The notes under the pieces: generated by a model
Seen by the model: only the letters and a program-made list of their open reading frames with translations
Database searches by the model: none
Told to the model about the DNA's origin: nothing
Part shown: in pieces, positions 14,802 to 64,000 of the stretch
Layout: every line of letters begins with the position of its first letter
Numbering within the stretch: position 1 is the stretch's first letter
DNA from: Zanthoxylum bungeanum
Lineage: Eukaryota; Streptophyta; Magnoliopsida; Sapindales; Rutaceae
Reading direction: 5' to 3'
Length of the DNA: 64,000 nt
Assembly: GCA_019454045.1 (NCBI GenBank)
Contig: SKCR01025359.1
Coordinates: 1 to 64,000 of the forward strand
Position numbers and translations under genes: made by a program

Positions 14802-14940
14802 GTCGCCCTCACTTTGATGGGACTCGTGCAGTGTGTGACAATGACAATCCTATCAAAGTTATGCGATGCATTTTTACTTACCTGGCTCGCCAGCTGCCAC
14901 TTGACTTGCATGTTGCCTTGAACTGAGTTGATCTGATTGT
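14802..14940 (-). other. 3' internal end of Tat-like copy D
   Basis: Matches 4198-4340 (cactttgatgggactcgtgcagtgtgtgac, atgcatttttacttacctgg), which places it just inside a 3' LTR. Non-coding. Confidence 0.65.
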
Positions 14941-15885
14941 GCCATACCCGGCATGCTAAACCTCATACCCGAGGTGTTGCGATTGCGTCTCGATACCCAG
15001 AGTGTCGCATCAGTGTCTCCAAACCCAGAGTGCCATACCTGGCATGCTAAACCCTATACCCGAGGCGTCGCGGTTGCGTCTCCATACCCAGAGTGTCGCA
15101 GTAGTGTCTCCACACCCGGAGTGTCATACCCGGCATACTAAACCCTATACCCGTGGCATCGCAGTTGCATCTCCATACCATGAGTGTCGCAGTAGTGTCT
15201 CCATACCCGGCATGCTAAACCCCATACTCGAGGCGTCACAGTTGTGCCTCCATACCCAGAGTGTCGCAGTAGTGTCTCCATACCCGGAGTGCCATACCTG
15301 GCATGCTAAACCCCATACCCAAGCCATCGCGGTTGCGTCTCCATACCCAGAGTGTCGTAGTAGTGTCTCCATACCCGGAGTGCCATACCCGGCATGCTAA
15401 ACCCCATACCCAAGGTGTCGCGGTTGCGTCTCCACGCCCAGAGTGTCACAGTAGTGTCTCCATACTCGGAGTGCCATACCTGGCATGCTAAACCCCATAC
15501 CCAAGCCATCGCGGTTGCGTCTCCATACCCAGAGTGTCGCAGTAGTGTCTCCATACCCGGAGTACCATACTCGGCATGCTAAACCCCATACCCAAGGAGT
15601 CGCGGTTGCGTCTCCATGCCCAGAGTGTCACAGTAGTGTCTCCATACCCGGAGTGCCATACCCAGCATGCTAAAACCAATAACCGAGGCATCGTGGTTGC
15701 GTCTCCATACCCAGAGTGTCGCAGTAGTGTCTCCATACCCGAAGTGTCATACCAGGCATGCTGAACCCCATACCCGAGGTGTCGCGGTTGCGTCTCCATA
15801 CCCAGAGTGTCGCAGTACTGTCTCCATACCCGGAGTGCCATACCTGGCATGCAAAACCCATACCCGAGGTGTCGCGGTTGTGTCT
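14941..15885. repeat. 91-bp minisatellite array 2
   Basis: Landmark catgctaaacccc recurs at about 14950, 15041, 15134, 15210, 15301, 15392, 15483, 15574, 15665, 15756 and 15848. Most steps are exactly 91 bp; the unit before 15210 is shortened. Because 91 is not a multiple of three, overlapping 62-residue frames appear in every unit. They have no coding value. The right end abuts integrase directly. Confidence 0.92.
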
Positions 15886-16595
15886 CCTATCCCATACTTA
15901 TGTAGCATTGCCTTTGTTTCTCCTTGAAACTGAATTCCATTGTTTGTTACTACATGATGCGGCATTCCATATCGGTATATGAGATTCCGAGCTATGAACT
16001 TCGCCATATGCTTGCTGTAACATTTCGAATTGACTCGGCTTCTACCCATTCGGAAAAGTAGTCCACTGCCACCACTATGAAACGATGTCCATTCGATGCA
16101 TGCGGTCGAATCACTTTGATCATATCAATTCCCCATGCTGAGAAAGGCCATGGCTCTGATAGCCCGTGTAACTCTGTGTGAGGTAGATGGTTCAAATTAC
16201 CGTGTGCTTGACAATCATGACAATGTTTTACCAGCTTTACACAGTCTGTCTCCATGGTCAACAATAGAATCCTTGTCTTACAATCTGGCGAGACAAATTC
16301 AACCCATTCATGTACGGTCCACATACTACGGCATGTACTTCTTCCATTACTTTCTGAGCCTCTTCTTTTCTTAAACATTTCAGCTGAATGCCATTTCTTT
16401 CCTCTTGTAGAGTTCTCCTTTCAAAATCACATACTGAGAAGTCAAATTCTGAATGGCTATCCTATCTTTTCTGCTTGCTTCTTCTGGGAGTTCTTTGTGT
16501 TCCAGGTATCGTTGAATATCATGGTACCAAGGTTTCCCATCGTCGACCTCCACTTCCAAAACTCTTTCTATCTCATAAACTGGTTCCCAATCTCG
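15886..16595 (-). pseudogene. Tat-like integrase, truncated (copy D)
   Basis: The minus strand reads KPWYHDIQRYLEHKELPEEA, YVILKGELYKR, KHCHDCQAHGNLNH, WGIDMIKVIRPHASNGHRF and YGMPHHVVTNNGIQF. Integrase then breaks off at KYGIG and runs into the minisatellite. The second catalytic Asp is replaced by Asn (TNN in place of TDN), and the third catalytic segment is lost. Frame breaks occur near 16380 and 16010. Inactive. Confidence 0.85.
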
Positions 16596-24623: not shown

Positions 24624-25600
24624 ATGACTGGAAAATTGAGCATTAGGGATATTGTCATGGGCGGCAACGTCTTTAATGGCACCAACTTTCAAGACTGGGA
24701 CATGAATCTCAGAATAGTTCTGGGATCTGAGAAGTTACTCTATACTATAGAGTGACCTCTTGGGCCTAAGCCCCGACCTGATCAGTTGATAGAGCTAGAG
24801 CTTTGGAATACTCATAGCGATGACAATGCGATTGCTCAATCGGTAATGCTTGCCGCTATGAATCCGCAATTCCGTCGTCAAAACAAGAGGTTGGATCCCT
24901 ATGAGATGATGGAGAAATTGCACGATCTCCACCGATCTAATCTTAGATCGCAAAGATACGAGTTGCAGAAGAAGTTCTTTCGGGCTCGCATGTCAGAGGG
25001 TACGTCTGTTGAGCATCATGTCTCACAGATGATTGCTGATATTGAGAAGCTCGGTCAGATGGGCATAGTCTTCGAGGCTGAGACTTCAGTGGATTTGATC
25101 CTACAGTCTCTCCCCGACACTTGGAGTGGGTTCATCATGAAATACAACATGCTGAACCAAGACCAGACTCTTGGAGAGTTGATGTCCACTCTGCGAGAGG
25201 CAGAGAAAGAGCTCCTTAAGGGCAAGAAGCGTGAGGCGTACTATGCTTCAATATCTCAGACTCCATGGGCTGGGCCCAAGGCGACTGGAGGTGTTAAAAA
25301 GAAGAAGCATAGGAAGAAGAGCAAGGCCAAATCGTCAAAGGCTTCTAGGAAGCCCAAGGACAAATCCCAAGATGTTTGTCTTCAGTGTAGACAGCAGGGT
25401 CACTGGAAGCGTGACTGCCACGAGTACAAGGCACTCAGGAAGGAAATCAAGGCGGACAAGGCACCGGCCTCATGTATGTTTGTTATAGAAATAAACATGA
25501 CTACTTCTATTTTTAAAAATTGGATTTTTGATTCTGGTTGTGGTACTCACATTTGTACTGATGTGCAGGATCTACGGATTAGCATGAGACTGGCTTCATG
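24624..25600 (+). pseudogene. Angela-like gag and protease
   Basis: The start MTGKLSIRDIVMGGNVFNGT at 24624 is the natural N-terminus. A stop at 24753 ends it after 43 codons, and the same frame continues to 25601. Capsid words include LDPYEMMEKLHDLHRSN and VSQMIADIEKLGQMGI. The zinc knuckle CLQCRQQGHWKRDC (25377-25418) has spacing CX2CX4HX4C. The protease motif WIFDSGCGTHIC lies near 25525-25560. A stop at 25599 and more near 25660-25730 separate it from integrase. Gag forms the particle and the protease would cut the polyprotein. Both are now disabled. Confidence 0.85.
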
Positions 25601-26904
25601 AGAGATTGACCTCCGTGTTGGAAATGGGACTCCAGTCGCCGTTTTGGCCTTTGGAACTTTTTTTTAGAACTGCCCTCGAGGCATGTACTTGAACTTATAG
25701 ACTGTTATTATGTACCTAGTTTGATTAGGAATATTATTTATGTATCTATGTTAGCCCAATGTGGGTACACTTTTGTATTTAGAAACACTGGGTGTTTTAT
25801 GTATAAAAATGATATAGAAATTTGCACTGCTGTTGTAAATAATGGTCTTTATATTTTGAATATAAACCAATCTCAAAATGTAACAAACAAAAGGCTTAAA
25901 GTAAGTCATAAAGATGAAACTTATATGTGGCATTGTCGTCTGGGACACATAAACAAAACTCGCATATCCACACTTTCGAAGAGTGGGTACTTGGATGGAT
26001 TTGATCCAAATTCATATGACGTCTGCGAATCTTGCTTATTAGGTAAAATGCCTAAATCACCTTTTAGTGGTAAAGGTGTACGTGCCACCGAACTGTTAGC
26101 CCTTTTTCATAGTGACGTTTGTGGGCCCATGTCTAGCAAGGCTAGAGGTGGATATGAATACTTCGTAACCTTTACGGATGATGCATCGCGTTATGGTTAT
26201 GTGTATCTTATGAGACACAAGTCAGAAACTTTTGAGAAATTCAAAGAGTTTCGACACGAAGTTGAAAAACAGACCGGTAAAAGTATTAACACATTACGGT
26301 CGAACCTTGGCGAATACTTGAGCAATGAGTTTCTTGACTACTTGAAAGAATATGGTATTCTTTCACAGTGGACTCCTCACGGGACACCGCAATTAAACGG
26401 TATGTCCGAACGGAGAAACCAAACCTTGTTAGACATGGTAAGGTCTATGTTGAGTCGCACTGAGCTACCTATTTCCTTCTGGGGATATGCATTAAACAGT
26501 GCAATACTTATTTTGAATAAGGTTCCGTCAAAGTCTGTTCAAAAGACACCATATGAGATATGGACAGGAAAAAACCAGGTTTCTCATTCCTGAAGATTTA
26601 AGGTTGCTGGGCATACGTCAAACGTTTGGAAGGTACCAAACTAGAACCCAAATCGAATAAATGCCTATTTGTAGGATATCCTAGGGAAACCAAAGGATAT
26701 TACTTCTATCACCCACGAGAGAACAAAGTTTTTGTTGCTCTACATGCGGTTTTCCTTGAGAAGGAATTCCTAAATGCAGTGATAAGTGGGAGGAAAGTAG
26801 AACTCGATGAAAATCATAGTGATATTATTCCTGGCATACAATCCTCAACGGAACATGAACAGTTCATCAGGGATGAAGCTGTACCACAATCTTCGAATAC
26901 ATAA
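25601..26904 (+). pseudogene. Angela-like integrase
   Basis: The pre-integrase zinc motif is HCRLGH...CESC. The catalytic core shows FHSDVCGPM (first Asp) and NGMSERRNQTLLDMVRSM (Glu). At the second Asp the sequence reads LRSNLGEYLSNEF, with Asn and one residue short, so the DDE triad is broken. A frameshift at about 26588 moves the tail into another frame, KCLFVGYPRETKGYYFYHPR and VFLEKEFLNAVISGRKVELD, ending at a stop at 26902. The tail words are close to those of Angela/BARE-type elements. Confidence 0.85.
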
Positions 26905-28394
26905 GGACCACGTAAGTCGGAGAGAATCAGAAAACAACCTGAGGGGTATGGGTTTCTGATCTCACCTCATGTAGATATCAATCTCATTGAGGAAGACGAG
27001 CCGGCTACGTATGAGGAACCGATACAAGATATCGATTCCGATTTATGGCAAGATGCCATGAAGTCCGAAATGGATTCCATGTATACAAACCAAGTTTTGA
27101 CACTGGTTGATGCACCAGAAGGCATAAAGCCTATTTGTTGCAATTGGATCTTCAAGAGGAAGACTGACATGGATGGAAACGTACAAACGTACAAAGATAG
27201 GCTTGTAGCAAAGGGGTATCGTCAACGACATGGTGTCAATTATGACAAAACTTTCTCACCCGTTGCCATGATTAAATCCATTCGGATAATGATTGCTATT
27301 GCTGCATATTTCGATTACGAGATATGGCAGATGGATGTCAAAATCACTTTCCTTAACGGAAACCTGTTGGAGGATGTTTATATGCAACAACCTGACGGTT
27401 TTGTCATGCATAAACATGTAAACAAGGTTTACAAGTTAAATCGGTCCATTTATGGACTGAAGCAAGCGTCGCGTTCTTGGAACCAACGTTTTGATGAGAT
27501 CATAAAAGAATATGATTTCGTTCAAAACGAAGATGATCCTTGTGTATACAAGAAGGTTAGTGGGAGCGCACTGACTTTCATTGTCCTTTATGTTGACGAT
27601 GTATTGCTTATGGGCAATGACATTCCCATGTTAACATCGATGAAAGCTTGGCTTTCATTAAAATTCTCCATGAAAGATCTGAGAGAAGTAGCCTTTATTC
27701 TAAGAATAAAGATCTACCGGGATAGATCTAGAAAGCTGCTTGGACTCTCCCAGAGCACGTATATTGACAAAGTGTTGAAAAGATTCAACATGGATCAGTC
27801 CAAGAGGGGACTGTTGCCAGTGTCACATGGCCTCACTCTATCTAAGGACATGTGTCCTAAAACTCAAGATGAGAGAGACAACATGAGTCGGATACCGTTC
27901 GCCTCGGCAGTCGGATCGATCATTTATGTCATGATATGTACGTGACCTGATGTCTCTTATGCTTTGAGCATGTGTAGTCGCTATCAGGCCGATCCAGGTG
28001 AAGGTCACTGGATAGTGGTTAAGATTATCCTTAAATATCTTAGACGAACTAAGGATACTTTCTTAATCCATGAAGATGGAGAACTTGAGGTAACTGGGTA
28101 TACCGATGCAAGTTTCCAAACCGATAAAGACGACTGTAAGTCAGAATCTGGGTACGTGTTTTGTTTGAATAACGGAGCAGTGAGTTGGAAATCTTCCAAG
28201 TAAGAGATTGTTGCCGATTCAACAACAGAAGCGGAGTATATCGCTGCAACTGAAGCAGCAAAAAGAGGAGTTTGGATCCAAAAAGTCATAATTGGATTAG
28301 GAGTAGTTCCGTTAGCAGCTGAACCCGTTCCATTGTATTGTGACAATAACGGGGCTATAGCGTAGGCTAAGGAACCGCGGTCTCATCAACTATC
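26905..28394 (+). pseudogene. Angela-like reverse transcriptase and RNase H (5' part)
   Basis: One frame with stops at 27943, 28201 and 28363. RT words are CCNWIFKRKTDMDGN, LVAKGYRQRHGVNYDKTFSP, IWQMDVKITFLNG, YGLKQASRSWN and the catalytic LYVDDVLL. RNase H words are GYTDASFQTDKDD, STTEAEYIAATEAAK and CDNNGAIA. The frame is cut at 28394, in the conserved SHQ-RSKH stretch, by the Athila-like element. The last 43 codons follow at 36590. Confidence 0.9.
28390..28394. repeat. Target site duplication CTATC (left of Athila-like element)
   Basis: CTATC before TGATGAGCGG pairs with CGATC at 36590-36594 after the right LTR. Only the right copy restores the expected Arg-Ser codons, so the left copy has taken one substitution. 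Confidence 0.75.
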
Positions 28395-29006
28395 TGATGA
28401 GCGGAAAATATATCAATATTTACCGCCCCTTTAACTTATATTTTGTTTAGTTTCTCGGGTTTGATGAACGTTTTGATGTGTTTTAGTTTATTTTGCAGAT
28501 AAAATAATATCAGATCTCAATGAAATCATTTAGGACGAAATATGGGTCAAATAAGGGCAATTATTGGACTTGATATTTTAATTTTGGAGATTGGAAACTT
28601 GAAAGGGCGTTTTTGACGAAGTGCAATTTTGGAAATTCCAATTTTGCGCATCTGTCGTATTTGGGGCATACCATTTTACTCTGATATCGGATTGAGCTGA
28701 TTCAAGTTCCAAATTAAAGAAGACTGAAAGATCTACAGCTTTGAAAGACAAAATAATTTCGATTTCTTACGATTTCATGCCAGAAATTGATGAACCATCC
28801 AGAAGTGTGTTGTGTGTAATTATTAAAGTCACTATCAATCATTTTCAAAGCAAAAAAATAAATAATAAATAAATAATAAAAATTATCAATCATCACCAAA
28901 CATGATAAGAGATTAGTGAAGCAATTAATAATGGATTTGGTGGAGCAATTAGTGGAGCAATTAATAATTGATTTGGTGGATGATTTGATGGAGGCAAAAT
29001 TTTGCC

Positions 29007-29014
29007 TATAAATA
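29007..29014 (+). promoter_or_regulatory. TATA box of the Athila-like LTR
   Basis: TATAAATA, conserved at 35351-35358 and, on the minus strand, at 63831-63838. In each case it sits directly after a GGCAAA-TTTGCC palindrome. Confidence 0.6.
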
Positions 29015-29099
29015 CCAAGCCATTTCATTTGTAAAATTCATACTTTCTCCTAAGGAATTCCTTAAGAATACTAAGAAGATTGTATCTTGTTTGTTTATT

Positions 29100-29475
29100 T
29101 ACAGCTTTCAGTAATTAATTTCCGTTTTCGCACTTTCTTTTCTTTACTTTTCAGTTTTTACTTTCCGCAATTTACTTTTACGCACAATACTTTTCTTTCT
29201 TTAATTTTCAATTTTAATTTCAGCATTTACTTTTCAGCAATTTACTTTCAGCATTTAATTTTCAGCATTTAATTTTCAGTTTTTACTTTCAGCATTTACT
29301 TTTTAGTAATTTACTTTCAGCATTTACTTTTCAGTAATTTACTTTCAGCATTTACTTTTCAGCAATTTACTTTCAGCATTTAATTTTCAGAATTTAATTT
29401 TCAGTATTTAATTTCAGCATTTACTTTCCGTCATTACTTTTCAGCAATTTACTTTCAGCATTTTACTTTATGTCT
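29100..29475 (+). repeat. Tandem array in the LTR (ACTTTCAGCATTT/ACTTTTCAGCAATTT)
   Basis: About twenty alternating copies of a 13-15 bp pyrimidine-rich word. The same array lies at 35480-35820 in the 3' LTR, and a shorter complement lies near 63640-63720. It sits downstream of the TATA box, in the transcribed part of the LTR. Confidence 0.8.
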
Positions 29476-30250
29476 TTTATTTTATTTAAGTTTTTACTAC
29501 CGGTAAATATGTGTCGTAACTAAGCCAGTTATCTGGGGTTGTGATGAAATCCAATATCACCGGTTTATAAGGGGTTAGATTATAGCTTGGGTAATATAAA
29601 GATTTATTTACTGAGTCTTAATCTTAATGCTTTTTCATTAACTGGCCATTAATAAAAATTGAACTGGGAAACTTAAAATGAACTAGACATAGGGATTTTA
29701 AGTTTAAGACCTTATACTCAATAGTCCACGATCTTCCTTGAGGATAGATAACCCTTTAATAGATTTCCTTACATGATATACATATACCTGTCGGGCGGGG
29801 GTAGCCATAATTGGAACTTAAACTTAATGAATCTAGATAATTTGGTTGACATAGACATATGGTTCAATTGGGTTAAATTGGGTATTTGTGTCTGACTATC
29901 GACAGAGGCTTACACATAATTTAGTGTTCCAGGTTAATAAATCAATATATTACCCAACTTTAAGATAACCACTTCATCTTTAAAATGATATTGGAAGAAA
30001 TCACAACCCTAGATAGTTTTTAATATTGAATTTTCTTAAAACCTACTTTCGAACAATTTTATTTACTTGTTTTTAAATTTAGAATCGTCACCATTTCAAA
30101 TCAATCAAACAACCTGTTAGATACTAGTAATCATTTGACCTTATAAATTAATAGATTAGATATTAAGTCGTCGTGGGATCAATATTTTTATACTACTTGA
30201 ACGATACGTGCGCTTGCGTTATACGTGTGTGTTTACGCCGGTCAAGTTTT

Positions 30251-30268
30251 TGGCGCCGTTGCCGGGGA
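30251..30268 (+). promoter_or_regulatory. Primer binding site, tRNA-Asp type
   Basis: TGGCGCCGTTGCCGGGGA, six bases after the LTR, is complementary to the 3' end of plant tRNA-Asp (including CCA). This is typical of Athila elements. Confidence 0.85.
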
Positions 30269-30375: not shown

Positions 30376-31454
30376 ATGAGACGAACCAGAAGCTTTGAAC
30401 TTAGACCGCTTGACCCAGAAATTGAAAGAACCATCAGACAGTTGAGAAGGGAAAAACGAGAAGGCCAAGAAGCTTTAGTCAACATGGAACCTGAACCTTT
30501 GGAGGTTGCACCACCAATTCCCATTCGAGACAGAACCATTCCGGTGGTTGACATACTCATTTCCTGTATGTACATCCTCCCTTACAGCAAATGCGTGTGA
30601 CATCAAAACATGCATTCTGATGATTCAGCAGTCAGTTCAGTTCGAGGGGAATGCAACTGAAGATCCTAACGCCCACATCAGTAACTTCCTGGAAGTTTGC
30701 GGTACTTTCAACTACAACCGAGAATCAAAAGAAGCAATGAGATTGCGTGTTTTCCCATACTCCTTGAAAGACAGAGCTAAAGCTTGGCTAGATTCACTAC
30801 CAGCAGGTTCTAACACAACTTGGAACACTTTAGCCACCAAATTTCTTGCAAAGTACTTTTCACCAGCCAGAACTGGAAAGCTGAGGAATGACATCACATC
30901 CTTTGTGCAACAAGACTCAGAAACTCTCTACGAAGATTGGGAAAAGTACAAAGATTTGCTCCGGAAATGTCCTCACCATGAGATTCCAAAATGGCTTCAA
31001 GTCCAAACATTCTATAATGGGCTTTCTGGAATAATGAGAACCACAATCGATGCTGCTGCTGGAGGAGCCTTGATGGCAAAAGGAGAAGATCAAGCCTGGG
31101 ACCTAATCGAAGAAATGGCCAACAACAATTCCTTGTGGCCAACAGAAAGGAGCATGATCCAAAGAATTGCAGGAATTTATAAAAGTGGAGCCAATACAGC
31201 AGTCAACGCCAAGCTAGATCAGATATGAAAATTCATGGAGACTCTTACCACTGGATCCACAAGTTCACCATAGGGAGGAGCACTAGAGTCAAACTAATTT
31301 GAAGAGATGGTGAATTATGTCAATAATTTCAACAGACAGGGGAACAATCTATATTCCAACACCTACAACCCAGGGTGGAGGAATCATCCCAATTTTTCAT
31401 GGAGCAACAATTTAGGCCAACAGCAGAACTATCCACCACCTGAATTCCAGCAAC
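30376..31454 (+). pseudogene. Athila-like gag
   Basis: Starts MRRTRSFELRPLDPEIERTI at 30376. A frameshift between about 30545 and 30600 moves it into the frame of 30506-31228. That frame holds the capsid: DPNAHISNFLEVCGTFNYN, AKAWLDSLPAGSNTTWNTLA, KLRNDITSFVQQDSETLYED and LRKCPHHEIPKWLQVQTFYN. Further stops at 31226, 31271 and about 31298 precede a gag tail, NNFNRQGN.LYSNTYNPGWRNHP and a Gln-rich stretch. Gag forms the particle; this copy cannot make it intact. Confidence 0.85.
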
Positions 31455-31754
31455 AGAAGAGAAAAAGTTCCACCAGCTCAACGAATTGGAGGAATTTCAC
31501 ATACAACCTTTTGAGGATGCCAAATTGTACAAGGAAAAGACATGATGAGAAGTTAGTGCGCATACAACTAGAACCAGGGCAGAAGGTACTGTTAAACAAA
31601 TCAAGGGTGAAATTCTTCCTATGGAAGCCAAAATAACGGTGGTTAGGTCCATTTGTGATCACCAAGGTTTTACCAGATAGAGCCGTTGAGATACATGATC
31701 CTGACTCCAACAAAACTTTCAAGGTTAAAAACAAGCGTGGCAAGCACTACTAGG
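31455..31754 (+). pseudogene. Integrase C-terminus fused to gag
   Basis: After the Gln-rich gag tail the sequence reads FHQLNELEEFHIQPFEDAKL, then in another frame EPGQKVLLNKSRVKF, LGPFVITKVLPDRAVEI and KTFKVKNKRGKHY. This is the end of an Athila integrase; compare 61744-62094. About 3.5 kb of pol is missing between the two parts. The C-terminal domain alone has no catalytic role. Confidence 0.8.
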
Positions 31755-31946
31755 GAGAATCATTTGAGCGACAAAAAGAAAGTGTTACACTTTCAGATCC
31801 AGCTTAACGTTCGAGAAGTCATGTCTGGCTGACGACTCTAAACTTAGCGCTTGCAGGGAGGCAACCCATGCAATTTTTGTATATATTGTGATTTGGTGTG
31901 ATTTAAATTTTGTGTGTTTAGTTTTTGCAGATTAAGACATTTCCGG
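31755..31946 (+). other. Spacer with conserved post-integrase block and acceptor-like site
   Basis: GTCTGGCTGACGACTCTAAA followed by agcgcttgcagggaggcaaccc is a block often seen after pol in Athila-type elements. A T-rich run ends in tttttgcag at 31930, just before the next ORF. It could serve as a 3' splice site for a subgenomic mRNA. The second element has a similar ttatttcag before its copy of the ORF. Confidence 0.5.
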
Positions 31947-32411
31947 ATGGAAGAAGTTCTCGCAAATCTTCACAAGCAATTTTCGTCTCTCCCTCAAAAC
32001 TCTCTGATGAAAGTCTACAAAGCTCGCTAGAAACAGATGAGACTACTAACAATTTATGGTGTTCCTAATGACATTCGTTGGGTAATTGAAGCACGAGTTC
32101 GATTGGCAAGTGAGTCTTCTGACTCTTTTATTTCACATCTGCCTGGTTTTGGAAGAAGCAACTATGCAAAGAAACGTAGAGCTAAGAAAATTAGTGTTTG
32201 TTACAAATGTGCACGCTGGAATTGCAATACTTGTTGTCGTTCTTTAGGAATGGTGTTTGATAATCGCGAAGATAAAATTAAATTCATTATGGATGGATTG
32301 AGTAAGGAGTATTTAGATGATATATCTTTAACTCTTGAGACGCATCCAAGTGGATATGTTCACATAGCCATTCGCAAATTACATACACAATTCCAAAAAG
32401 AAAGACAATAA
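31947..32411 (+). pseudogene. Conserved cysteine-rich ORF of the LOG-carrying element (copy 1)
   Basis: 154 codons from ATG at 31947, with one stop at 32028. The N-terminus is MEEVLANLHKQFSSLPQN, then YGVPNDIRWVIEARVRLASE. A basic stretch YAKKRRAKK is followed by CYKCARWNCNTCC (CX2CX4CX3C) and NREDKIKFIMDGLSKEYLDD. The minus-strand copy at 61043-61564 keeps the start, IRWVI-ARVRLA-ES, RRAKK-VCYKCAR, CNT-CRSLGM and DDISLTLE-HPSGYVH, so it was a real gene of the family. The basic run before a Cys cluster recalls small nucleic-acid-binding proteins of some plant RNA viruses (carlavirus type). That likeness is by eye and unproven. No known retroelement domain is recognised. Confidence 0.6.
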
Positions 32412-32754: not shown

Positions 32755-33406
32755 ATGGAAGCCACTTCAAGAAGACAAATTGAGAACATCTGTGTGTTTT
32801 GCGGTAGTAGTGTTGGTGTTAAGCCACAATACGTAGAAGCAGCACAAGAATTGGGTCGAGTCTTAGCTGCAAGGAATATGCACTTAGTATATGGCAGATG
32901 CAATCTTGGACTTATGGGGATCGTTTCAAAAGCTGTACAGGAAGAAGGCAGTCATGTTTTGGAATCATCCCAAAACCATTGGCAGAAGCAAATCTTATTG
33001 AACCATCAAACGGAGAGGAACTGATCTTGCCAGGTATGTCTGAACGTTTGGTAGAAATGATTAACCGTGCTGATGCTTTTATTGCTTTGCCTGGTGGCTT
33101 GGGTACATTGGAGGAAATTTTTATTGTGCTATCTTGGGCGAACCTGAACATACACCAGAAACCAATTGGGCTTTACAACGTTGATGGATTTTATGATTTT
33201 CTTTGTGTGTTTCTTGATGATGCCCGGAGAATGGGTTCGTGTCAAAACCTTTGAAAGAACTTCTATTTACTGCCAGAAATGCTTCGGATCTAATAGAGCA
33301 ACTCATAGCCTATGAACCACGAGTTGACCCTATCCTTTCAAAGATAAATTGGTACGAGGACGATCGTGGTAAGAGGCGTAGGATTAATCTGGATCTTAAC
33401 CTCTAA
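32755..33406 (+). pseudogene. LOG: LOG-family cytokinin riboside 5'-monophosphate phosphoribohydrolase (copy 1)
   Basis: LOG enzymes release active cytokinin base and ribose 5-phosphate from the nucleotide, in cytosol and nucleus. About 217 codons, a full-length match, with no introns. Visible: ENICVFCGSSVGVKP (residues about 10-24), MSERLVEM (Arg, about 95-102), PGGLGTLEE (about 113-121, the phosphoribosyl-binding/catalytic motif), SWANLNIHQKPIGL and DGFYDF. Two single-base deletions, near 32960 and 33237, put it in three frames. The glycine-rich loop reads GRCNLGLMG where GGGxxGLMG is expected. The start at 32755 is chosen from copy 2 and from the family N-terminus. The tail has DDRGKRRRINLDLNL. 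It lies between integrase remains and the 3' LTR, on the element's coding strand. Confidence 0.88.
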
Positions 33407-34720
33407 TTTCCTGTAGAATTTCAGCTAACCAGATATTATTTTCTAAACTCTTCTTCTACTTTTTAAGACATTTGGGACAATGTCTCATTTAGGTTTGGGG
33501 GAGCGAATTAGTTGATCAGTACCTTGTTTTTAGTTTGTGTGTTGTTTTTATTTTTAGTCCAAAATTTTTCGAAAAATACAAAAAAAAAATGAAATTTTTT
33601 CAAAAAATACAAAAATATTTTTCATTTTCTGTTTTTATTTTGACTAAAAAGGTGAAATTGGTAAGAGATAGCTGAGTAAGGAGTTTCCACTCCTGAGACG
33701 TATCTCAAACCATTTTTGAAACAAGTTAATTTTTGTTTATTTCATTTTGAATTATTTAATTTGTGAATTCTCCTTAACACTGACTAAAATGAATCTTCAT
33801 ATGCTCAGTTGACATATATTATCAACATATATAGTAACATACGGACATGAGCTAAAATTGAAAAGTTTGTAATATTAAGTGCTCAAGTTTAATTGGAGGA
33901 AGCATCTCGAAAAGCAATGGAGTAACAAAAAAAAACGTCTGAGATCCGAGTTATTAAGTCTGTAAGGGTGTTTTAACACTTAGTGCCCTAGAACCAACTG
34001 GTTTGGGAGTCACTGGCCCAAAGCTCGTTACATGGATCAAAGATGCTGCAAAAATATATATATTTGAAGTCTGAGTAATTAAGTTTGTAGGGGTGTCTTA
34101 ACACCTGGTGCCCTAAAGCCAACTGGTTTGGGAGCCACCGACCCAACACTCGCTACATAGATGGAAGATATTGTATATAAATAAAAAAAATAGAGAAAAA
34201 TCAAAGAAAAAATCAGAAAAATCAGAAAAATTATTTCATTGCTACAAAAAGGTGTGAAATCTGATAGAACTTTAGGACAAAAATATTACTCTCTTATCAA
34301 CTGCACTTATGACTGTTGTGGGCAAAAATGAGTTGATTAATATTTTGTCGACTGTGTATATAGAGAATGGTAAAAATAATCGGAGAATTTACTTATTCGG
34401 TAATTTAGAATGAAACAAAACAACTATTGATTTGGAGTAGAAGTTTCACCTGATTAGTCACTAACTTCTTTATTCTCTTTTCTCTTGTCTTTTGATTTTT
34501 TATGCATTAGTTTCACTACCTTTTTACTTTTGTAAAACGTTTGTGGGTATCGTTGATGTAAGCCTTCACGAGACTATAACTCGTCCACTAGGGACACCTA
34601 GGGGTTAAAGGCTTGTTGCATATGCTAAATGCAACCGTGATCCCTACGAAAGTGGCTTAATTTAATTTTAATTGTTTCTTGTATTTTATTTTATTGTTTT
34701 GCTCGAGGACTAGCAAAATG
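33407..34720 (+). other. 3' non-coding region of the Athila-like element
   Basis: No coding frame. A gtttgggggag purine run occurs at 33495. Two copies of an about 130-bp repeat (33939-34165) share gtgccctagaaccaactggtttgggag. T- and A-rich stretches follow. The reverse complement of much of it is at 59067-60090 in copy 2. Confidence 0.6.
33939..34165 (+). repeat. Two-copy tandem repeat, about 130 bp
   Basis: Both copies run gtctgag...taagt-tgta-gggtgt-ttaacac...gccaactggtttgggag-cac. Copy 2 of the element has three units (59165-59530, minus). Confidence 0.7.
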
Positions 34721-34735: not shown

Positions 34736-36589
34736 TGATGAGCGGAAAATATATCAATATTTACCGCCCCTTTAACTTAATATTTTGTTTAGTTTCTCGG
34801 GTTTGATGAAAGTTTTGATGTGTTTTAGTTTATTTTGCAGATAAAATAATATCGGATCTCAATGAAATCATTTAGGACAAAATATGGGTCAAATAAGGGC
34901 AATTATTGGACTTGATATTTTAATTTTGGAGATTGGAAACTTGAAAGGGCGTTTTTGACGAAGTGCAGTTTTGGAAATTCCAGTTTTGCGCATCTGTCAT
35001 ATTTTGGGCATACCTTTTTACTCCGATATCGGATTGAGCTGATTCAAGTTCCAGATTAAATAAGACTTAAAGATCTACAGCTTTGAAAGACAAAATAATT
35101 TCGAATTCTGAGGATTTCATGCCCGAAATTGATGAACCATCCAGAAGTGTGTTGTGTGTAATTATTAAAGTCACTTTCAATGATTTTCAAAGCAAAACAA
35201 TAAATTAATAAATAAATAATAAAAATTATCAAATCATCACCAAACATGATAATAGATTAGTGGAGCAATTAATAATGGATTTGGTGGAGCAATTAGTGGA
35301 GCAATTAATAATTGATTTGGTGGATGATTTGATGGAGGCAAAATTTTGCCTATAAATACCAAGCCATTTCATTTGTAAAATTCATACTTTCTTCTAAGGA
35401 ATTCCTTAAGAATACTAAGAAGATTTTATCTTGTTTGTTTATTTACAGCTTTCAGTAATTAATTTTCGTTTTCGCAATTTCTTTTCTTTACTTTTCAGTT
35501 TTTACTTTCCGCAATTTACTTTTACGCACAATACTTTTCCTCTTTAATTTTCAATTTTTACTTTCAGCATTTACTTTTCAGCAATTTACTTTCAGCATTT
35601 AATTTCAGCATTTAATTTTCAGTTTTTACTTTCAGCATTACTTTTCCGTAATTTACTTTCAGCATTTACTTTTCAGTAATTTACTTTCAGCATTTACTTT
35701 TCAGCAATTTACTTTCAGCATTTAATTTTCAGCATTTAATTTTCAGTATTTAATTTCAGCATTTACTTTCCATCATTTACTTTTCAGCAATTTACTTTCA
35801 GCATTTTACTTTATGTCTTTTATTTTATTTAAGTTTTTACTACCCGTAAATATGTGTCGTAACTAAGCCAGTTATATGGGGTTGTGATGAAATCCAATAT
35901 CATCGATTTATAAGGGGTTAGATGATAGCTTGGGTAATATAAAGATTTATTTATTGAGTCTTAATCTTAATTCTTTTTCATTGACTGGCCATTAATAAAA
36001 ATTGAACTGGGAAACTTAATATGAACTAGACATATGGATTTTAAGTTTAAGACCTTAGACTCAATAGTCCACGATCTTCCTTGAGGATAGATAACCCTTT
36101 AATAGATTTCCTTACATGATAGACATATACCTGTCGGGCGGGGGGTAGCCATAATTGGAACTTAAACTTAATGAATCCAGATAATTTGGTTGACATAGAC
36201 ATATGGTTCAATTGGGTTAAACTGGGTATTTGTGTCTGACCATCGACAGAGGCTTACACATAATTTAGTGTTCCAGGTTAATAAATCAATATATTACCCA
36301 ACTTTAAGATAACCACTTCATCTTTAAAATGATATTGGAAGAAATCACAACCCTAGATAGTTTTTAATATTGAATTTTCTTAAAACCTACTTTCGAACAA
36401 TTTTATTTACTTGTTTTTAAATTTAGAATCGTCACCATTTCAAATCAATCAAACAACCTGTTAGATACTAGTAATCATTTGACCTCATAAAATTAATAGA
36501 TTAGATATTAAGTCCTCGTGGGATCGATATTTTTATACTACTTGAACGATACGTACGCTTGCGTTATACATGTGTGTTTACGCCGGTCA
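34736..36589 (+). mobile_element. Athila-like 3' LTR
   Basis: TGATGAGCGG...CGCCGGTCA, 1854 bp, nearly identical to 28395-30244 and carrying the same TATA box, palindrome and repeat array. It is followed by CGATC, the right target duplication. Confidence 0.88.
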
Positions 36590-49048: not shown

Positions 49049-52000
49049 TAAGCGTGAAAAAATATAACCGTTTGCCTACATGTCCATCTTGGTTGCCTTC
49101 ATATCTGCTTTGTCCAAACGGCAGTCACGCTTCCGTGATCCGTTTGCCACATTTAGGCAGACATTTTGGGATATGTCCTTTTTCTTCCCAAAAACAATAT
49201 AATGTTGCCTTTGCCCTTTTCAATACTCCAGAAGCCTTTTGACCAATCCACGGGTTTCTAGAATATCGAAGTATGGTGCGCCTTGCGCTACTTGCCAAAT
49301 TGTAAATTTTGACTTTATCTCCTTGAGAATAGTCATTAACTCTCCAAGAGTTATTTATTGCAATTTAGTACTTCTAAAATTTTAAAGATATATTTATGAA
49401 GATCCTTTAATTTCTTTATCATACTTTAAAGATCTAATCCTTAGTTCTGATTCAGAAATTAAGGAGTCTACTGCGACAAGCTTAATGGATTAAGCACTTA
49501 AGTTATCATCACATGATCTTCCAAAGATTATGCTCTACTGTTTGCTTAACTCCGGGCTTAGGCTTAATACGTTATTTTATCAAATAATGTAACTTATTAT
49601 TTTTAAGGACCATCCTGAAATATTATTCCCAATTTGAAAATTAAACCATTTAAATACATTTTCCCTATGATTATGTTTCAAATGTTAATCTTTCAATTTA
49701 TCTTGATTCTAATAGTCCAACTATTTAATCAACGATTTGTGGTACTATTTATTATATTGATTATTATAGTCCAACTATACAATAAAATATAATTTAAATT
49801 AATTAACCTCAATTATATTGATTTCTATAGTCCAACTATAAAATCAACTATTGATTGAAATTAATTAATCCAAATATATTGATTACTATAATCCAATTAT
49901 ATAATCAACTATAATACAGTCCAACTGTTTAATTAAAACAACAATTTAAATATTAGTCCAACTAACATTTAATTTATAACGACGAATGATATTTGTTTGA
50001 GCGCGTATGGCAAGTAATTAAACGAATATTGCAAATTCAATTCTTGCCTCCCACTATTTTTCGGCGAGCCTCTAACCCTCTGTCGAGTACTCGGGAAATC
50101 GTGTTTCCTAGTGGGCTAGGATCCCGTTAAATATCACACAATCTTGACTTTGGCCAACAAATTGTATGATAATTAACTAGGTAGATCTCTAAGATCGATT
50201 GGATCCAATCCAATTCCTAGATCCGGTAGGAGGACATCCAAGTCCGGAACATATATCTTATATATGCCAATACATCCAATGTATTACCTAACCTTTTTCC
50301 TCTGAATCAACTAAGCCTTGGCTTTGGCACAACAAACTTAGTGATCCCAGTCAAGCGCGACCCATTGACCATGGAAAGCTTCGTAATCAATGTCGATGGA
50401 CAAGAAGTGGTCTTGACTTTGGCCAACAAACCACAACTTGGACAAGACACTGACATGGAACAAAGCTCTCGTGATTCAAACACATCCTCGACGGACAAAG
50501 GCCTTTACTTTGGCCAACAAGCCAATGCCAGTCTCAGACTTGAGTGAGAATCACTCAATGGAAGGAAAGACACTTAATATTGTGCGAGGGTTTTTTGAGT
50601 GCAAATTGGCAACCAATTTATTATCTTTGTTAAGGTCTCATCATCATACACCTTTAAACATGCATTCTAAATACATAATAAAGCGCGTATAATGATATAC
50701 AGATGGATACTTTACCCATTGATCCTAGATCAAATATCTCCCTTTCTCTCTCCCGCTAGCACAAGTATCACACAAGTATCACTTCTACCCGTTACACTAC
50801 ACTTCTAAAGAAACCTCATTTACATTGAGAGGAATAGGTGAGAAGAGAATACAAAGAAATGAGAGGTAATAAGGCTAGACACGCAGGTCCAATTAATAAA
50901 TCAAATTTATTACAACAATTTCTAAAATTGTCCCACCCATCTAATATCCATCTGATATACATTATGCATGCATCGCAACCATGTATTCACACAAGCATGT
51001 TATCAATCAATTTAATCAAATTAATTAATATGATAATTAGTGATCATCCAATGTTCAAACTACGATTTGATTTTGTTCGAGTCAAACTCGTTATTGCGAA
51101 TAAGTACTCAAAGTACATATTCTCGAATTAAATTAAACTACATCATTAAATCCAATTTAATATGCATTCAATTCTAATTCACTATTTAATTCCAAATTAA
51201 ATACTACACTTTATTAATGAACTTTTACGACTTAAATTCCAAATTTAATCGCAACGGGTCTCAAAACCCGATTAACGTCCAACGTCAATTTAATTAAAGT
51301 CCAATGGGCTTTTAATTAATTTCTTAAGGCGTGGACTTTTGGTCAACTCGGGTCAAATCGATAACCAAAGTCCAATATGGGAATTACCTCATGAGCCTAG
51401 AAATCAATCTTGGCCCATTAGGCCCAATTAAACTTTAAAGGTCCATTAAGTCGCATTTGGGCTTTATGGAAGCGGTTTTGGGCCCAATTGGATCCAACCA
51501 ATTTTTCCTAAACCCAACTTTGTACAACAAAGCCCAACAAGCCCAATTACAACACAAAAGCCCAAATCCAATTTTAAGGCCAATTAATTCAACACAAAAA
51601 ATTCCAATTTCACATTTAATTAACCAAAGTGCATTAACATAATTAATCACCCAAATCATTATTTCCAAAACACAAATTAGGCTAATTAATCATGCTCATC
51701 TACATCCATTAGTGTCCAACACAAATTGATTAAAATCAAACCCATTACATGCTCATCATGTCTCGGCCAAGGGGAAATTATTTTGTCCAAATCAAATTCA
51801 ATCCAATTAAATTCAATTCAACACAAATCAATATTCCCAACACATTTCTAACTCATCCAATGAATCAAAAAATCAAAATCCCAAGACATTAAAATAGGGC
51901 ATCAAATTCGGCCATGCCAAATTTTTGGGGCAAATTTGTTCCAAACCAAATTTGATCAAATTGATCCAATCAATCTCAAATTAAAACATATCTAAGCATA

Positions 52001-52097
52001 CTAATTCATCCAATTTCATTAAACATGCTCAAATACAATTTTACCCAAATTTTTAACCCTAACCAATTTCATGCTCAACCTTTAGCTCTGATACCAT
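49049..52097 (-). pseudogene. Decayed Angela-like gag and leader, minus arm
   Basis: On the minus strand, PBS (52096-52085), a leader of about 2.4 kb, then gag remnants from about 49690 to 49060 with many stops. The gag end matches the plus arm at 54114-54370 (tacttcgatattctagaaaccc, gacatatcccaaaatgt, gaagcgtgactgccgt). The leader contains the GGCCAAAGTC words seen in the intact copy (50150, 50410 and 50510, complement) and an expanded run of tagtccaactat repeats (49700-49960). No pol follows. Confidence 0.75.
52085..52096 (-). promoter_or_regulatory. Primer binding site, initiator-Met type
   Basis: TGGTATCAGAGC on the minus strand, an exact initiator tRNA-Met complement, one base from the LTR end. 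Confidence 0.8.
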
Positions 52098-59066: not shown

Positions 59067-59164
59067 CCCACAATATCATAAGTATTTGTTAAAAAGAGAG
59101 TAATATTTTTGTCCTAAAATTATATTAGAGTTTACACATTTTGGCAGTGAAAGTTTATTTATAA

Positions 59165-60091: not shown

Positions 60092-60749
60092 AATATTACA
60101 GATTAAGGTCCAGGTTTACTTTGCGCTTTTGCCACGATCGTTACCAGACTAGTTTTACTTGGAAAGAATAAGGTCGATTCTTGGTTTAAAAGCTAAGAGT
60201 TGGTCAATTAAATCATCAGCTTTTCTTGCAGATACGAAAATATCTCTTACCAGTTTTGAAATAAATCCATTTCTTTTGGCATCTTCAAGAAATACAAAAA
60301 GTAAATCGAAAAATCCATTAACATTAAACAACCCAATGGGTTTTTGGTGAATATTCAAGTTTGCCCATGACGCAACTGTGAATATTTCTTCCAACTTTCC
60401 TAGCCCACCTGGTAAAGCAATGAAAACATCAGCATGATTGATCATTTCAGTGAGTCTTTCAAACATACATTGGACAATAAATTCTTCTCCATTTGATTTT
60501 TCTATGATGTTGTCCTCTGTTAAGGGTTTTGGGATGATCCCCAAAACTTGACTGCCACCTTTTTGTACAGCTTTTGAAATACACCCCACCAATCCAAGAT
60601 TACCACCGCCATATACTTAGTGAATGATTCTGTTTGCCATAACTCTACCCAATTCTCTTGCACCCTCAACAAATTCTGGTTTAGTTCCGGAGCTGGTTCC
60701 ATAAGAACACACAAATATTAGTGAAACGTCATTTCGAAGTTGTCTCCAT
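60092..60749 (-). pseudogene. LOG: LOG-family cytokinin riboside 5'-monophosphate phosphoribohydrolase (copy 2)
   Basis: Minus strand, ATG at 60749. The first 50 codons contain stops and a small indel. From about 60620 the frame is open to 60155 and encodes the glycine-rich loop GGGNLGLVG, GIIPKPLTEDN, FERLTEM (Arg kept), PGGLGKLEE (Thr of the family replaced by Lys), SWANLNIHQKPIGL and KRNGFISKLVRDIFVSARKA. A stop after ILSK precedes a degraded tail that still ends in NLDLNL after a one-base deletion. About 69% of residues match copy 1 over some 127 positions. Intronless like copy 1, and also broken. Confidence 0.86.
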
Positions 60750-61042: not shown

Positions 61043-61564
61043 TCATCTAACTTTCTTATAAATTGGCAAACAGGGTCTTTTAAAGTCAGATTCCCGAGAC
61101 TGTAATGTTGTTTTTCTTTTGGAAATTGTGTGTAATCTGTGAATTTCACGATGAACATATCCACTAGGATGCATCTCAAGAGTCAATGATATATCATCAA
61201 AAGGCTCCGTACTCAGTCCATCTCTAATTAATTGAATTTTATCTTCTCGATTATTAGACATCATTCCTAAAGAACGACAACGAGTGTTGCACGTACAACG
61301 TGCACACTTATAACAAACACCTAATTTTTTAGCTCTTCGTTTTTAGAATAGGTGTTTTTCCTTGAACCATACATGTAAGGAATGAGGAGTCAGGTGACTC
61401 ACCTGCCAAGCGAACTCTTGCTTTAATTACCCAACGAATATCACAAGGAATACCATGAATCATAAGAAGTCTCATCCTTTCTGTGCGTGCTTTTAAATGT
61501 TTGTCCGAGCATTTTGGGGAAGAGAAGGAAAATGTTTGCGGAGGTTTGTGAGAGTTTCTTCCAT
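61043..61564 (-). pseudogene. Conserved cysteine-rich ORF (copy 2)
   Basis: Starts MEETLTNLRKHFPSLPQN at 61564. Stops and shifts follow near 61500 and 61345, then an open part from about 61345 to 61043 with RRAKKLGVCYKCARCTCNTR and DDISLTLEMHPSGYVHREIH. The Cys pattern is CYKC...CNTxC, shared with copy 1. The same position between integrase and LOG supports a family gene of unknown role. Confidence 0.6.
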
Positions 61565-62364: not shown

Positions 62365-64000
62365 TGACCGGCGTAATCACACACGTATAACGCAAGCGAA
62401 CGTATCGTTCAAGTAGTATAAAAAGTATCGATCCCACGAGGACTTAAAACCTTTTTGTTATTAATTTATGGGGCCAACTGATTACCAGTATCTAACAGGT
62501 TGTTTGATTGATTGATTTGAAATGACGATGATTCTAAATTTAAACAAGTAAATATAATTGCTTAAGAGTAGGTTGAGAAAAATCCAAATTTATAAACTAT
62601 CCAGGGTTGTGATTAATTCCAATATTATTTAGAAGATGAAGTGGTTATCTTAAAGTTGGGTAATATATTGATTTATTAACCTGGAACACTAATTTATGTA
62701 AAAGCCTCTTCCGATGGTCAATTTCAAATACCTAGTATAATCCAATTGAACCATATGTCTATGTCAACCAAATTACCTAGATTCATTAAGATTAAGTTCC
62801 AATTATGGCTACCCCCGCCCGACAGGTATATCCTATCCTGTAAGGAAATCTATTAAAAGGGTTATCTATCCTCAAGGAAGATCGTGGGTTATTGAGTCTA
62901 AGGTCTTAAACTTAAAATCCCTATGTCTAGTTCTTTTAAGTTTACCTAATCAATTTTATTAATGGCCAGTTAATAAAAAGCATTAAGATTAAGACTCAAT
63001 AAATAAATCTTTAAATTACCCAACCTATAATCTAACCCCTTATAAACCGGTTATATTGAAATTCATCACAACCCTAGATACTAACTTAGTTACAATACAT
63101 AGCTATGGCTAATGAAAACTTAAAAGACATAAAATATAAATGCTAAAAAGTAACTGCGAGAAAGTAAAAGCGGGAAAGTAAATGAAAATAAACTGCCAAG
63201 ATAAAAGGAATTACTTTTACTAATTACTAACTTAGATATCTCCCTTAGTATAACATAATCACTTGTGAGATTAAAACCAACCGACCATATAGGCGGTACC
63301 CTGATTAAGTCAAGTTAAGTCCGACCAGCCATAAAGGCGGTAAAATTTGTCCATGAACCTGCCATGTAGGCGATAAAGAAATAACCAGCCATAAAGGCGG
63401 AACCAAAATTAAATTACTAACCGACCAATCTGGCGGTATCCTTGCTTAGTCAGGTTTAACAGTTTAAATTAAATAGCCCACCGACCAATATAGCGGTATT
63501 CCTTTTTAAGTCAAATTTTAGAATAGTGAATATGTTGTGTCTAAGGGAGATTAATCTAAGATAGTAACAGTAAAAGAATTACCTTTCACCTCGACAGAGG
63601 GAAGTTACCTCCTCATGGTTGAAAAATAAAAACCGAAAAAGTAAAGAAAGGAAAGTGTTATGCGTAAAAGTAAATTACGGAAAGTAAAACTGAAAAGTAA
63701 AGAAAAGAAAGTGCGAAATTGAAAATTAATTACTGAAAACTAAAAATAAACAAACTAGATACAATCTTTTTATTTTTTCATTAAGGATTTCAAAGAAGAA
63801 AGTATGAATTTTACAAATGAAATGGCTTGGTATTTATAGGCAAAGTTTTGCCACCATCAAATCATCAATCAATTTCTCCACCAAATCCATTATTAATTTC
63901 TCCACTAATTACTCCACCAAATCCATAATTGCTCCAATAATTTCTTATCTTGTTTGGTGGTGATTTGATAATTTTTATTAATTATTTATTAATTAATATT
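62365..64000 (-). mobile_element. Athila-like LTR, minus orientation, runs off the window
   Basis: The minus strand ends GATTACGCCGGTCA at 62365, like copy 1. It shares the cctgtcgggcgggggtagccataattgg block (62805-62830, complement), the TATA box (63831-63838) and the palindrome, but has extra ccgacca-ataggcgg repeats (63280-63500). No primer binding site separates it from integrase, so it may be an insertion into integrase or a deletion product. Confidence 0.8.

What the first reader, a model, noticed from the sequence alone, without database searches (positions are those of the whole stretch)
32755..33406. A cytokinin-activation gene (LOG) carried by an Athila-like retrotransposon family
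Seen: a full-length intronless LOG gene lies between integrase remains and the 3' LTR of a bounded element, and again in the same place and orientation in a second, diverged copy (60092-60749). The two copies share about 69% of residues. Many codons differ only at the third base, and replacements are mostly conservative (Val/Ile, Asp/Glu, Tyr/Phe, Arg/Lys). Inference: the gene was under purifying selection while being carried, so it served the element or was tolerated as an active enzyme. A mobile element able to raise active cytokinin in its host cell would favour dividing, meristematic cells, which is where transposition pays.
Basis: partly seen in the sequence, partly recalled or inferred. 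Interest (0 to 1): 0.9.

Follow-up and report, generated by a model that had tools for sequence, protein, structure and literature searches.

The report
Jumping gene carrying cytokinin-activating enzyme
An abundant plant retrotransposon family carries its own copy of a plant-hormone-activating enzyme (LOG), often next to a gene resembling a plant-virus protein, and the pattern of mutations shows that the enzyme's sequence was protected by selection while the element spread, which suggests the element uses it to influence its host cell.

Summary
Both window copies are dead (A: two frame shifts; B: stops and a changed catalytic motif), so "full-length" holds for extent only. The same 3.96 Gb genome holds many copies: 150 of 150 scored hits pass the Pfam cut-off; 19 of 20 fetched loci have a related LTR 0.9-1.6 kb after LOG; 8 of 40 flank-chosen copies are intact. 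A versus B dN/dS is 0.14. In flank-chosen copies, private variants look nearly neutral (N/S per site 0.65-0.69), those in four or more copies constrained (0.18-0.21, no stops). The element LOGs sampled form one clade beside the plant LOGs sampled. Apparently new: a C-terminal basic patch plus LxLxL tail (143 of 177 relatives, 0 of 113 LOG1/3-type host LOGs) and a neighbouring ORF matching carlavirus nucleic-acid-binding families (15 of 15 open frames). LOG in such elements is in print (PMC9289625; Steinbauerova 2011, recalled). Cytokinin action and benefit to the element are inferred.

The parts
28395..30244 (+). 5' LTR of element A (TG...CA)
   Evidence: 96.7% identical to 34736-36589 over 1857 columns; K2P 0.028
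30251..30267 (+). primer-binding-site-like motif TGGCGCCGTTGCCGGGG just after the 5' LTR
   Evidence: same 17-mer in 10 of 20 fetched loci. That it is an Athila/Tat-type PBS is recalled
30620..31228 (+). gag fragment
   Evidence: ORF, PF03732 2.8e-20
31536..31760 (+). integrase tail remains close behind gag remains (RT, RNase H and integrase core missing)
   Evidence: read by eye; same arrangement in L109 and L121; fuller order in L124
32037..32411 (+). accessory ORF 1: carlavirus-type C4 zinc-finger nucleic-acid-binding protein (NABP/CRP-like)
   Evidence: PF01623 28.3 bits (cut-off 20.9), PF05515 28.2 (cut-off 23); 15 of 15 open frames picked match both at E<=0.01
32755..33406 (+). accessory ORF 2: LOG copy A, broken by two frame shifts, no stop among the mapped codons
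33407..34735 (+). non-coding stretch between LOG and 3' LTR, with sub-repeats about 33938-34157
   Evidence: 33420-34180 used as flank probe
34736..36589 (+). 3' LTR of element A
62365..64000 (-). 5' LTR of copy B (cut by window end), followed at once by integrase-like coding
   Evidence: 85-86% to A's LTRs; sequence read
61127..61475 (-). NABP-like ORF of copy B, broken
   Evidence: tblastn pieces 61475-61386 and 61342-61127
60092..60749 (-). LOG copy B, broken (stops, T to K in PGGxGTxxE)

Best explanation
This is an accessory gene of a large Athila-like Ty3/gypsy family. Probably one ancient capture of a plant LOG gene (intronless here; that plant LOG genes have introns is recalled) gained a C-terminal basic patch plus LxLxL tail and has been kept under purifying selection in the active element lineages, in the place where many Athila elements carry an env-like ORF. 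Most likely mechanism: the element expresses LOG, which releases active cytokinin bases from nucleotide precursors in the host cell; the tail probably sends it to the nucleus and may bind a co-repressor; in many copies a CRP-like zinc-finger protein acts alongside, and the pair pushes the cell towards division or weakens silencing, so more cells carrying new insertions reach the germ line. Shown: element location, one clade, selection at protein level, LOG fold and catalytic residues, tail, NABP-like neighbour. Inferred: enzyme activity, nuclear targeting, cytokinin effect, benefit to the element.
For: Location: 19 of 20 loci have a related LTR after LOG (median 1322 bases, range 927-1636); chosen by flank, 39 of 40 copies hold some LOG codons and 33 at least 180; chosen by LTR, 6 of 19 stretches hold LOG at the expected place. 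Selection: A-B dN/dS 0.137; 0.233 among 21 LOG copies in the Pfam-chosen loci, with gag 0.288 and NABP 0.308 in the same loci, against 0.63-0.74 for non-coding flank and 0.81 for an out-of-frame read; private to shared gradient in flank-chosen copies 0.69, 0.43, 0.21 (0.65, 0.45, 0.18 without L149, L150). Mean dS 0.21 far exceeds LTR divergence (median K 0.024), so most change predates insertion. One clade 100/98. Arg98 kept in 162 and Glu121 in 171 of 177 relatives. AlphaFold model of the relative P0001 has pLDDT 84.8 and best match plant LOG 2a33. Tail 143 of 177 against 0 of 113. Viral CRPs suppress silencing, and one induces hyperplasia (passages of PMC12172455).
Against: No activity, expression, localisation or phenotype data. 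The Lys after the catalytic Arg is hydrophobic in 167 of 177 relatives, so substrate or rate may have changed. The NCBI equivalog model for the cytokinin phosphoribohydrolase scores below its cut-off (101.1 and 104.5 against 300). In the flank-chosen sample the plain pairwise ratio for LOG is 0.523 (bootstrap 0.416-0.600), above NABP's 0.399; 32 of 40 are not intact; 6 stop variants are shared by 2-3 copies, so broken copies can be copied. When both samples are pooled, variants in 2-3 copies (0.58) are no more constrained than private ones (0.54); only those in four or more are (0.16). None of the LTR-chosen copies is intact (0 of 19). NABP is missing from 8 of 20 loci. Cytokinin is diffusible, so the benefit would be shared with other copies.
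Confidence: 0.5

Rival explanations
1. The element LOG is a selected accessory protein but not (mainly) a cytokinin enzyme: the LOG fold serves as a nuclear scaffold whose LxLxL tail recruits TOPLESS-type co-repressors, or it hydrolyses other nucleotides useful in particles or against nucleotide-based host signals.
For: Tail in 143 of 177 relatives and in 0 of 113 LOG1/3-type host LOGs; Lys99 replaced by a hydrophobic residue in 167 of 177; tail disordered in the model; basic-patch-only forms in the first branch of the clade (P0036, P0057).
Against: PGGxGTxEE is kept in 147 of 177 and the catalytic Arg/Glu in 162 and 171, which a scaffold would not need. Tail function rests on motif resemblance (EAR recalled).
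Confidence: 0.25
2. A passenger gene: captured once, tolerated, no benefit; apparent constraint is a leftover of host selection before capture or of repeated re-capture.
For: 32 of 40 flank-chosen copies lack an intact ORF; 6 stops shared by 2-3 copies, and no private-to-2-3 drop in the pooled sample.
Against: dS 1.67 with dN/dS 0.137 between A and B, both inside the element clade; re-capture is argued against by that clade and by at most 51% identity of the 150 scored copies to a host LOG3; constraint in the Pfam-chosen loci is like gag's; out-of-frame and non-coding controls are much higher; private against shared Fisher p 0.002 (31 flank-chosen copies).
Confidence: 0.1
3. The clade is a real host LOG subfamily (LOGL10-like) that retrotransposons picked up repeatedly, not one element-borne lineage.
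For: Some members are annotated as host genes (Populus LOGL10); outside this genome element location was not tested here; LOG5/7-type host genes are not in the tree.
Against: 45 of 120 listed rows are Reevesia gene models with locus tags on 18 chromosome prefixes, a repeat-like spread; PMC9289625 found the domain in Gypsy consensuses of Populus; members share the tail.
Confidence: 0.15

Closest known systems
Athila-like elements with LOGL4-like extra ORF (Steinbauerova et al. 2011, Genetica; not held, abstract recalled) and YgdH/LOG domains in Gypsy consensuses of Citrus and Populus (PMC9289625, section 12 read, passages elsewhere)
   Same: LOG-type domain in Ty3/gypsy elements; Athila-like by the recalled abstract
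   Different: In what I saw they report presence. Not in the text seen: selection, a clade with host outgroup, C-terminal tail, NABP-like neighbour, pol-less carriers
AlkB/m6A demethylase domain in orchid Ty3/gypsy elements (PMC9289625)
   Same: Captured host-type enzyme kept in a plant Gypsy element
   Different: Different enzyme, acting on RNA methylation by that paper's title; found only in two Phalaenopsis species in that screen
Arabidopsis Athila elements (PMC2410132; abstract, section 8 and passages read)
   Same: Pol-less members keep ORFs under purifying selection; third ORF besides gag and pol; recombination between families
   Different: Third ORF there is env-like; a term search of that text for LOG and lysine decarboxylase found nothing
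Plant LOG1/3/8 cytokinin riboside monophosphate phosphoribohydrolases (2a33, 1ydh)
   Same: Fold, PGGxGTxxE, catalytic Arg and Glu
   Different: About 50% identity, intronless, Lys99 mostly replaced, added basic and LxLxL tail
Carlavirus cysteine-rich protein / NABP (PMC12172455 passages)
   Same: Pfam PF01623 and PF05515; basic run followed by four cysteines
   Different: In a retrotransposon, open frame from ATG of about 180-190 aa in the longer copies; no silencing or nuclear data here
Cytokinin genes of gall-formers (Agrobacterium ipt, Rhodococcus fas operon; recalled)
   Same: A parasite carries cytokinin-making genes
   Different: Here a transposon, with LOG only, relying on host precursors

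Membership tests
LOG (TIGR00730, PF03641) protein family | Profile score over curated cut-off | tested here: met
   Copies A and B, read with X at breaks, 154.6 and 147.1 bits against 96.35; 150 of 150 scored genome hits over PF03641 cut-off
LOG (TIGR00730, PF03641) protein family | PGGxGTxxE and catalytic Arg/Glu | tested here: met
   Copy A intact, copy B changed; relatives 147/177 PGGxGTxEE, 162/177 Arg98, 171/177 Glu121
LOG (TIGR00730, PF03641) protein family | LOG fold | tested here: met
   Model of relative P0001 (85% to copy A) matches 2a33, E 6.3e-21, TM 0.93 by target
Cytokinin-activating LOG enzyme (NF058542 equivalog) | Score over equivalog cut-off 300 bits | tested here: not met
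   101.1 and 104.5 bits; host plant LOGs were not run as a yardstick
Cytokinin-activating LOG enzyme (NF058542 equivalog) | Releases free cytokinin base from riboside monophosphate | not testable with these tools
   needs an enzyme assay
LTR retrotransposon, Ty3/gypsy order | Paired LTRs, TG...CA, TSD, PBS, gag, and RNase H then integrase | tested here: met
   RNase H then integrase core in L124, not in element A itself; TSD 4 of 5 bases
Athila lineage | RT/INT phylogeny places it in Athila | not tested
   Named from gag and integrase motifs and PBS recalled from memory; no RT tree was made
Athila lineage | Athila ORF-1 domain PF03078 (16% of Athila elements, PMC6317226 passage) | tested here: not met
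   No hit among the 14 proteins scanned; not a required feature
Carlavirus-type NABP/CRP | PF01623/PF05515 over cut-off and four cysteines | tested here: met
   Window copy over both cut-offs; of 4 genome copies three over both, one (L124) below both; 15 of 15 at E<=0.01; C58, C63, C67 invariant, C55 nearly
Carlavirus-type NABP/CRP | Suppresses RNA silencing, acts in nucleus | not testable with these tools
   described for viral CRPs only (passages)

The most novel reading that the evidence does not exclude
An endogenous retrotransposon lineage of rosids and asterids evolved a two-gene host-control cassette: a nuclear, co-repressor-binding cytokinin-activating LOG and a zinc-finger protein related to plant-virus silencing suppressors that also act as transcription factors. 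It would be the transposon counterpart of gall-forming bacteria's cytokinin genes, selected because it enlarges the pool of dividing, less-silenced cells in which new insertions are passed on.
Probability: 0.22. Interest if true: 0.92.

Novelty: new variant of a known kind. Interest (0 to 1): 0.72.

Why it matters
It is unusual for a transposon to keep a hormone-activating enzyme of its host under purifying selection, here at a level like gag's in the loci compared, across divergent sublineages. If the enzyme is active, a noticeable part of this plant genome consists of elements able to alter a master hormone of cell division, and the old question whether transposons manipulate host development to spread becomes directly testable with one enzyme assay and one localisation test. 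The virus-like neighbour gene points to traffic of accessory genes between plant RNA viruses and retrotransposons.

Tried and rejected
Rejected or argued against: two separate host-gene insertions (both copies fall in one clade); bacterial donor (the 16 bacterial LOGs in the tree fall outside; the 80 bacterial loci kept are 36-50% identical, no closer than plant LOG); passenger drift; artefact of choosing intact copies (repeated with flank-chosen copies, and LTR-chosen; for the latter I asked for 20 of the 39 other hits and got 19 stretches).

Led nowhere: viral contigs for LOG (18 distant relatives) and NABP (none); finding host LOG exons in this genome (the 150 scored rows of each are only 47-51% and 60-69% identical to the LOG3 queries; a third piece did not complete). 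Literature beyond PMC9289625: searches showed no further paper on LOG or NABP in retrotransposons, judged by titles, abstract starts and term counts (one search lists 20 of 253, 20 of 46, 10 of 248); PMC7264820, a review of additional ORFs, has no LOG or cytokinin term. NABP presence is scattered on the LOG tree (12 changes; starred branches force at least 7; shuffled mean 17.8), but the 1.44 kb stretches end close to the expected NABP start, so some 'no NABP' labels may be wrong. The host species was not identified.

The 177 'element-clade' relatives are the full-length ones among 204 best hits of two searches; 34 of the 204 were placed in the tree, all inside the clade, the rest are assumed. 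The 113 host LOGs are close hits of a LOG3 query, so LOG5/7/8-type tails were not compared.

Full report
What is there. The stretch 32755-33406 reads as a complete LOG-type protein (TIGR00730; PF03641; plant structure 2a33 E 1.3e-51), but over three frames, so this copy is dead. It sits in a bounded element: LTRs 28395-30244 and 34736-36589, 96.7% identical, K2P 0.028, a PBS-like motif, gag, then integrase-tail remains (by eye), a small ORF, LOG, and 1.3 kb of non-coding DNA before the 3' LTR. RT, RNase H and the integrase core are missing. Copy B (60749-60092, minus) has the same order after a 5' LTR, is also dead, and loses homology to A at about 59067; no LTR of this family follows in 52000-59067. 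A and B share 65% of 195 residues.

How common. The window lies in a 3.96 Gb assembly. A search with PF03641 gave 47,331 unverified first-look candidates, of which 150 were scored; 150 of 150 pass the curated cut-off and 147 have no stop inside (best scorers, so biased towards intact). Of 20 fetched loci, 15 have a LOG ORF of at least 212 aa, 19 have a related LTR downstream (median 1322 bases, range 927-1636), and 11 have paired LTRs longer than 1.1 kb around LOG within the stretch (window A is the twelfth row there). LTR K2P runs from 0.006 to 0.041, median 0.024, so some insertions are young. To avoid choosing by LOG, I probed with the non-coding flank (40 scored of 4,404 candidates): 39 of 40 copies (window included) hold LOG codons, some only 20-60, 33 at least 180, and 8 of 40 have an intact ORF. 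Probed by LTR (40 scored of 5,349), 19 stretches were obtained; 6 hold LOG on the right strand at the expected distance, none intact. 5' and solo LTRs are expected among the other 13, but I did not sort them.

Element types. L124 holds gag, RNase H, integrase core, NABP-like ORF (below both Pfam cut-offs) and LOG in order (its gag-pol is broken by stops; RT was seen as a motif, not scored by Pfam). Window A, L109 and L121 are gag/protease-type elements without pol core (by eye). L108, L119 and L125 have a 3.9-4.3 kb internal part with an acidic ORF and LOG; the L108 ORF has no Pfam match. So LOG is kept in element types that have lost pol. NABP-like sequence is present in 12 of 20 loci and 21 of 40 flank-chosen copies, and is scattered on the LOG tree, as expected if modules are swapped or lost repeatedly. 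PMC2410132 (abstract, section 8, passages) describes pol-less Arabidopsis Athila elements with selected ORFs and recombination between families.

Selection. A against B: dS 1.67, dN 0.228, ratio 0.137. Among 21 LOG copies in the Pfam-chosen loci the ratio is 0.233; in the same loci gag gives 0.288 (10 copies) and NABP 0.308 (12 copies), each with window A included; controls are 0.63-0.74 (non-coding flank, three frames) and 0.81 (out of frame). That sample is biased to good LOGs, so the likeness to gag is only a rough one, and I repeated LOG on flank-chosen copies. There the plain pairwise ratio is 0.523 (bootstrap 0.416-0.600; NABP 0.399), as expected if many copies are decayed. Splitting variants by sharing helps: N/S per site is 0.69 for variants in one copy, 0.43 in two or three, 0.21 in four or more (0.65, 0.45, 0.18 without the two most decayed, L149 and L150; private against shared Fisher p 0.002 in that set); stops are 4, 6 and 0. 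NABP shows 0.90, 0.36, 0.08; the Pfam-chosen LOGs 0.37, 0.24, 0.09. With both LOG samples pooled the middle class does not fit: 0.54, 0.58, 0.16. Private variants are near the non-coding level; those that spread widely with the element are constrained. The six stops shared by 2-3 copies show that broken copies can be copied too. Synonymous distance (mean 0.21) is much larger than LTR distance (0.024), so most divergence arose between active lineages.

Origin. In a tree of 75 proteins, 42 element-clade LOGs (34 public relatives, 6 genome copies and both window copies) form one group (100/98); 17 plant LOGs form another (99/96); with the 16 bacterial LOGs as outgroup these two are sisters. Named members outside this genome come from Malvales, Sapindales, Malpighiales and Lamiales (taxonomy checked for Reevesia, Xanthoceras and Rehmannia, the rest recalled). 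That those are element-borne was not tested here; 45 of 120 rows are Reevesia gene models with tags on 18 chromosome prefixes, and PMC9289625 reports the domain in Gypsy consensuses of Citrus and Populus. Host LOG genes of this genome were not found; only the best 150 candidates are scored. Host sampling is LOG1/3-type plus one LOG8, so the exact donor is open.

What changed in the protein. Among 177 full-length relatives, catalytic Arg98 is kept in 162 and Glu121 in 171, but the next Lys is hydrophobic in 167 (that these are the catalytic residues is recalled). A C-terminal LxLxL occurs in 148 (0 of 113 host LOGs, LOG1/3-type), a basic patch in 164 (1 of 113), both in 143. The first branch of the clade (P0036, P0057) has the basic patch only. 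LxLxL resembles the EAR motif (recalled). The model of P0001 is LOG-like with a disordered tail.

The neighbour. The small ORF before LOG matches Carla_C4 and Viral_NABP over both cut-offs in the window copy and in three of four genome copies, and at E<=0.01 in the 15 open frames picked; its basic run and cysteines are conserved. Viral CRPs of this kind suppress RNA silencing, and CVB p12 acts as a transcription factor causing hyperplasia (passages of PMC12172455). That both accessory genes could act on cell proliferation is suggestive, not evidence of function. A search for these Pfam names found three papers; by listing (titles and abstract starts), two are on methylglyoxal genes and one on a carlavirus.

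Verdict. The inference of selection holds. The mechanism (cytokinin, meristems) remains a good hypothesis. LOG in such elements is known; the selection evidence, clade, tail and NABP partner were not met in the searches, whose library lacks most subscription papers, Steinbauerova 2011 among them.

Noticed in passing
window 32037-32411 and 61475-61127: ORF upstream of LOG matches carlavirus NABP/CRP families; similar sequence lies upstream of LOG in both window copies and 12 of 20 fetched loci
   Followed up: yes
L108 4704-5960 (minus), L119 4094-4567, L123 2783-3970: Compact LOG-carrying elements with an acidic ORF bearing a zinc-knuckle-like CxxCxxxHxxxxC; the L108 ORF has no Pfam match. May be a remnant or replacement of gag
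   Followed up: partly
L112 1-8811 (reverse complement): Two LOG units about 3.5 kb apart within a 98.6% direct repeat, as in tandem LTR-internal-LTR-internal-LTR arrays
   Followed up: no
window 6654-7757 and 14847-15951: 91-base tandem repeat arrays at two places, next to gag- and integrase-like ORFs
   Followed up: no
window 62365-62388: In copy B the LTR end is followed at once by integrase-like coding, without PBS or gag, so a large internal deletion (read)
   Followed up: partly
window 24846-27945: Copia-like polyprotein remains just upstream of element A (ORFs, judged by eye)
   Followed up: no
window 33938-34157 and 59525-59155: Diverged sub-repeats of about 85-125 bases between LOG and the 3' end, at least two copies in A and three in B
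   Followed up: no
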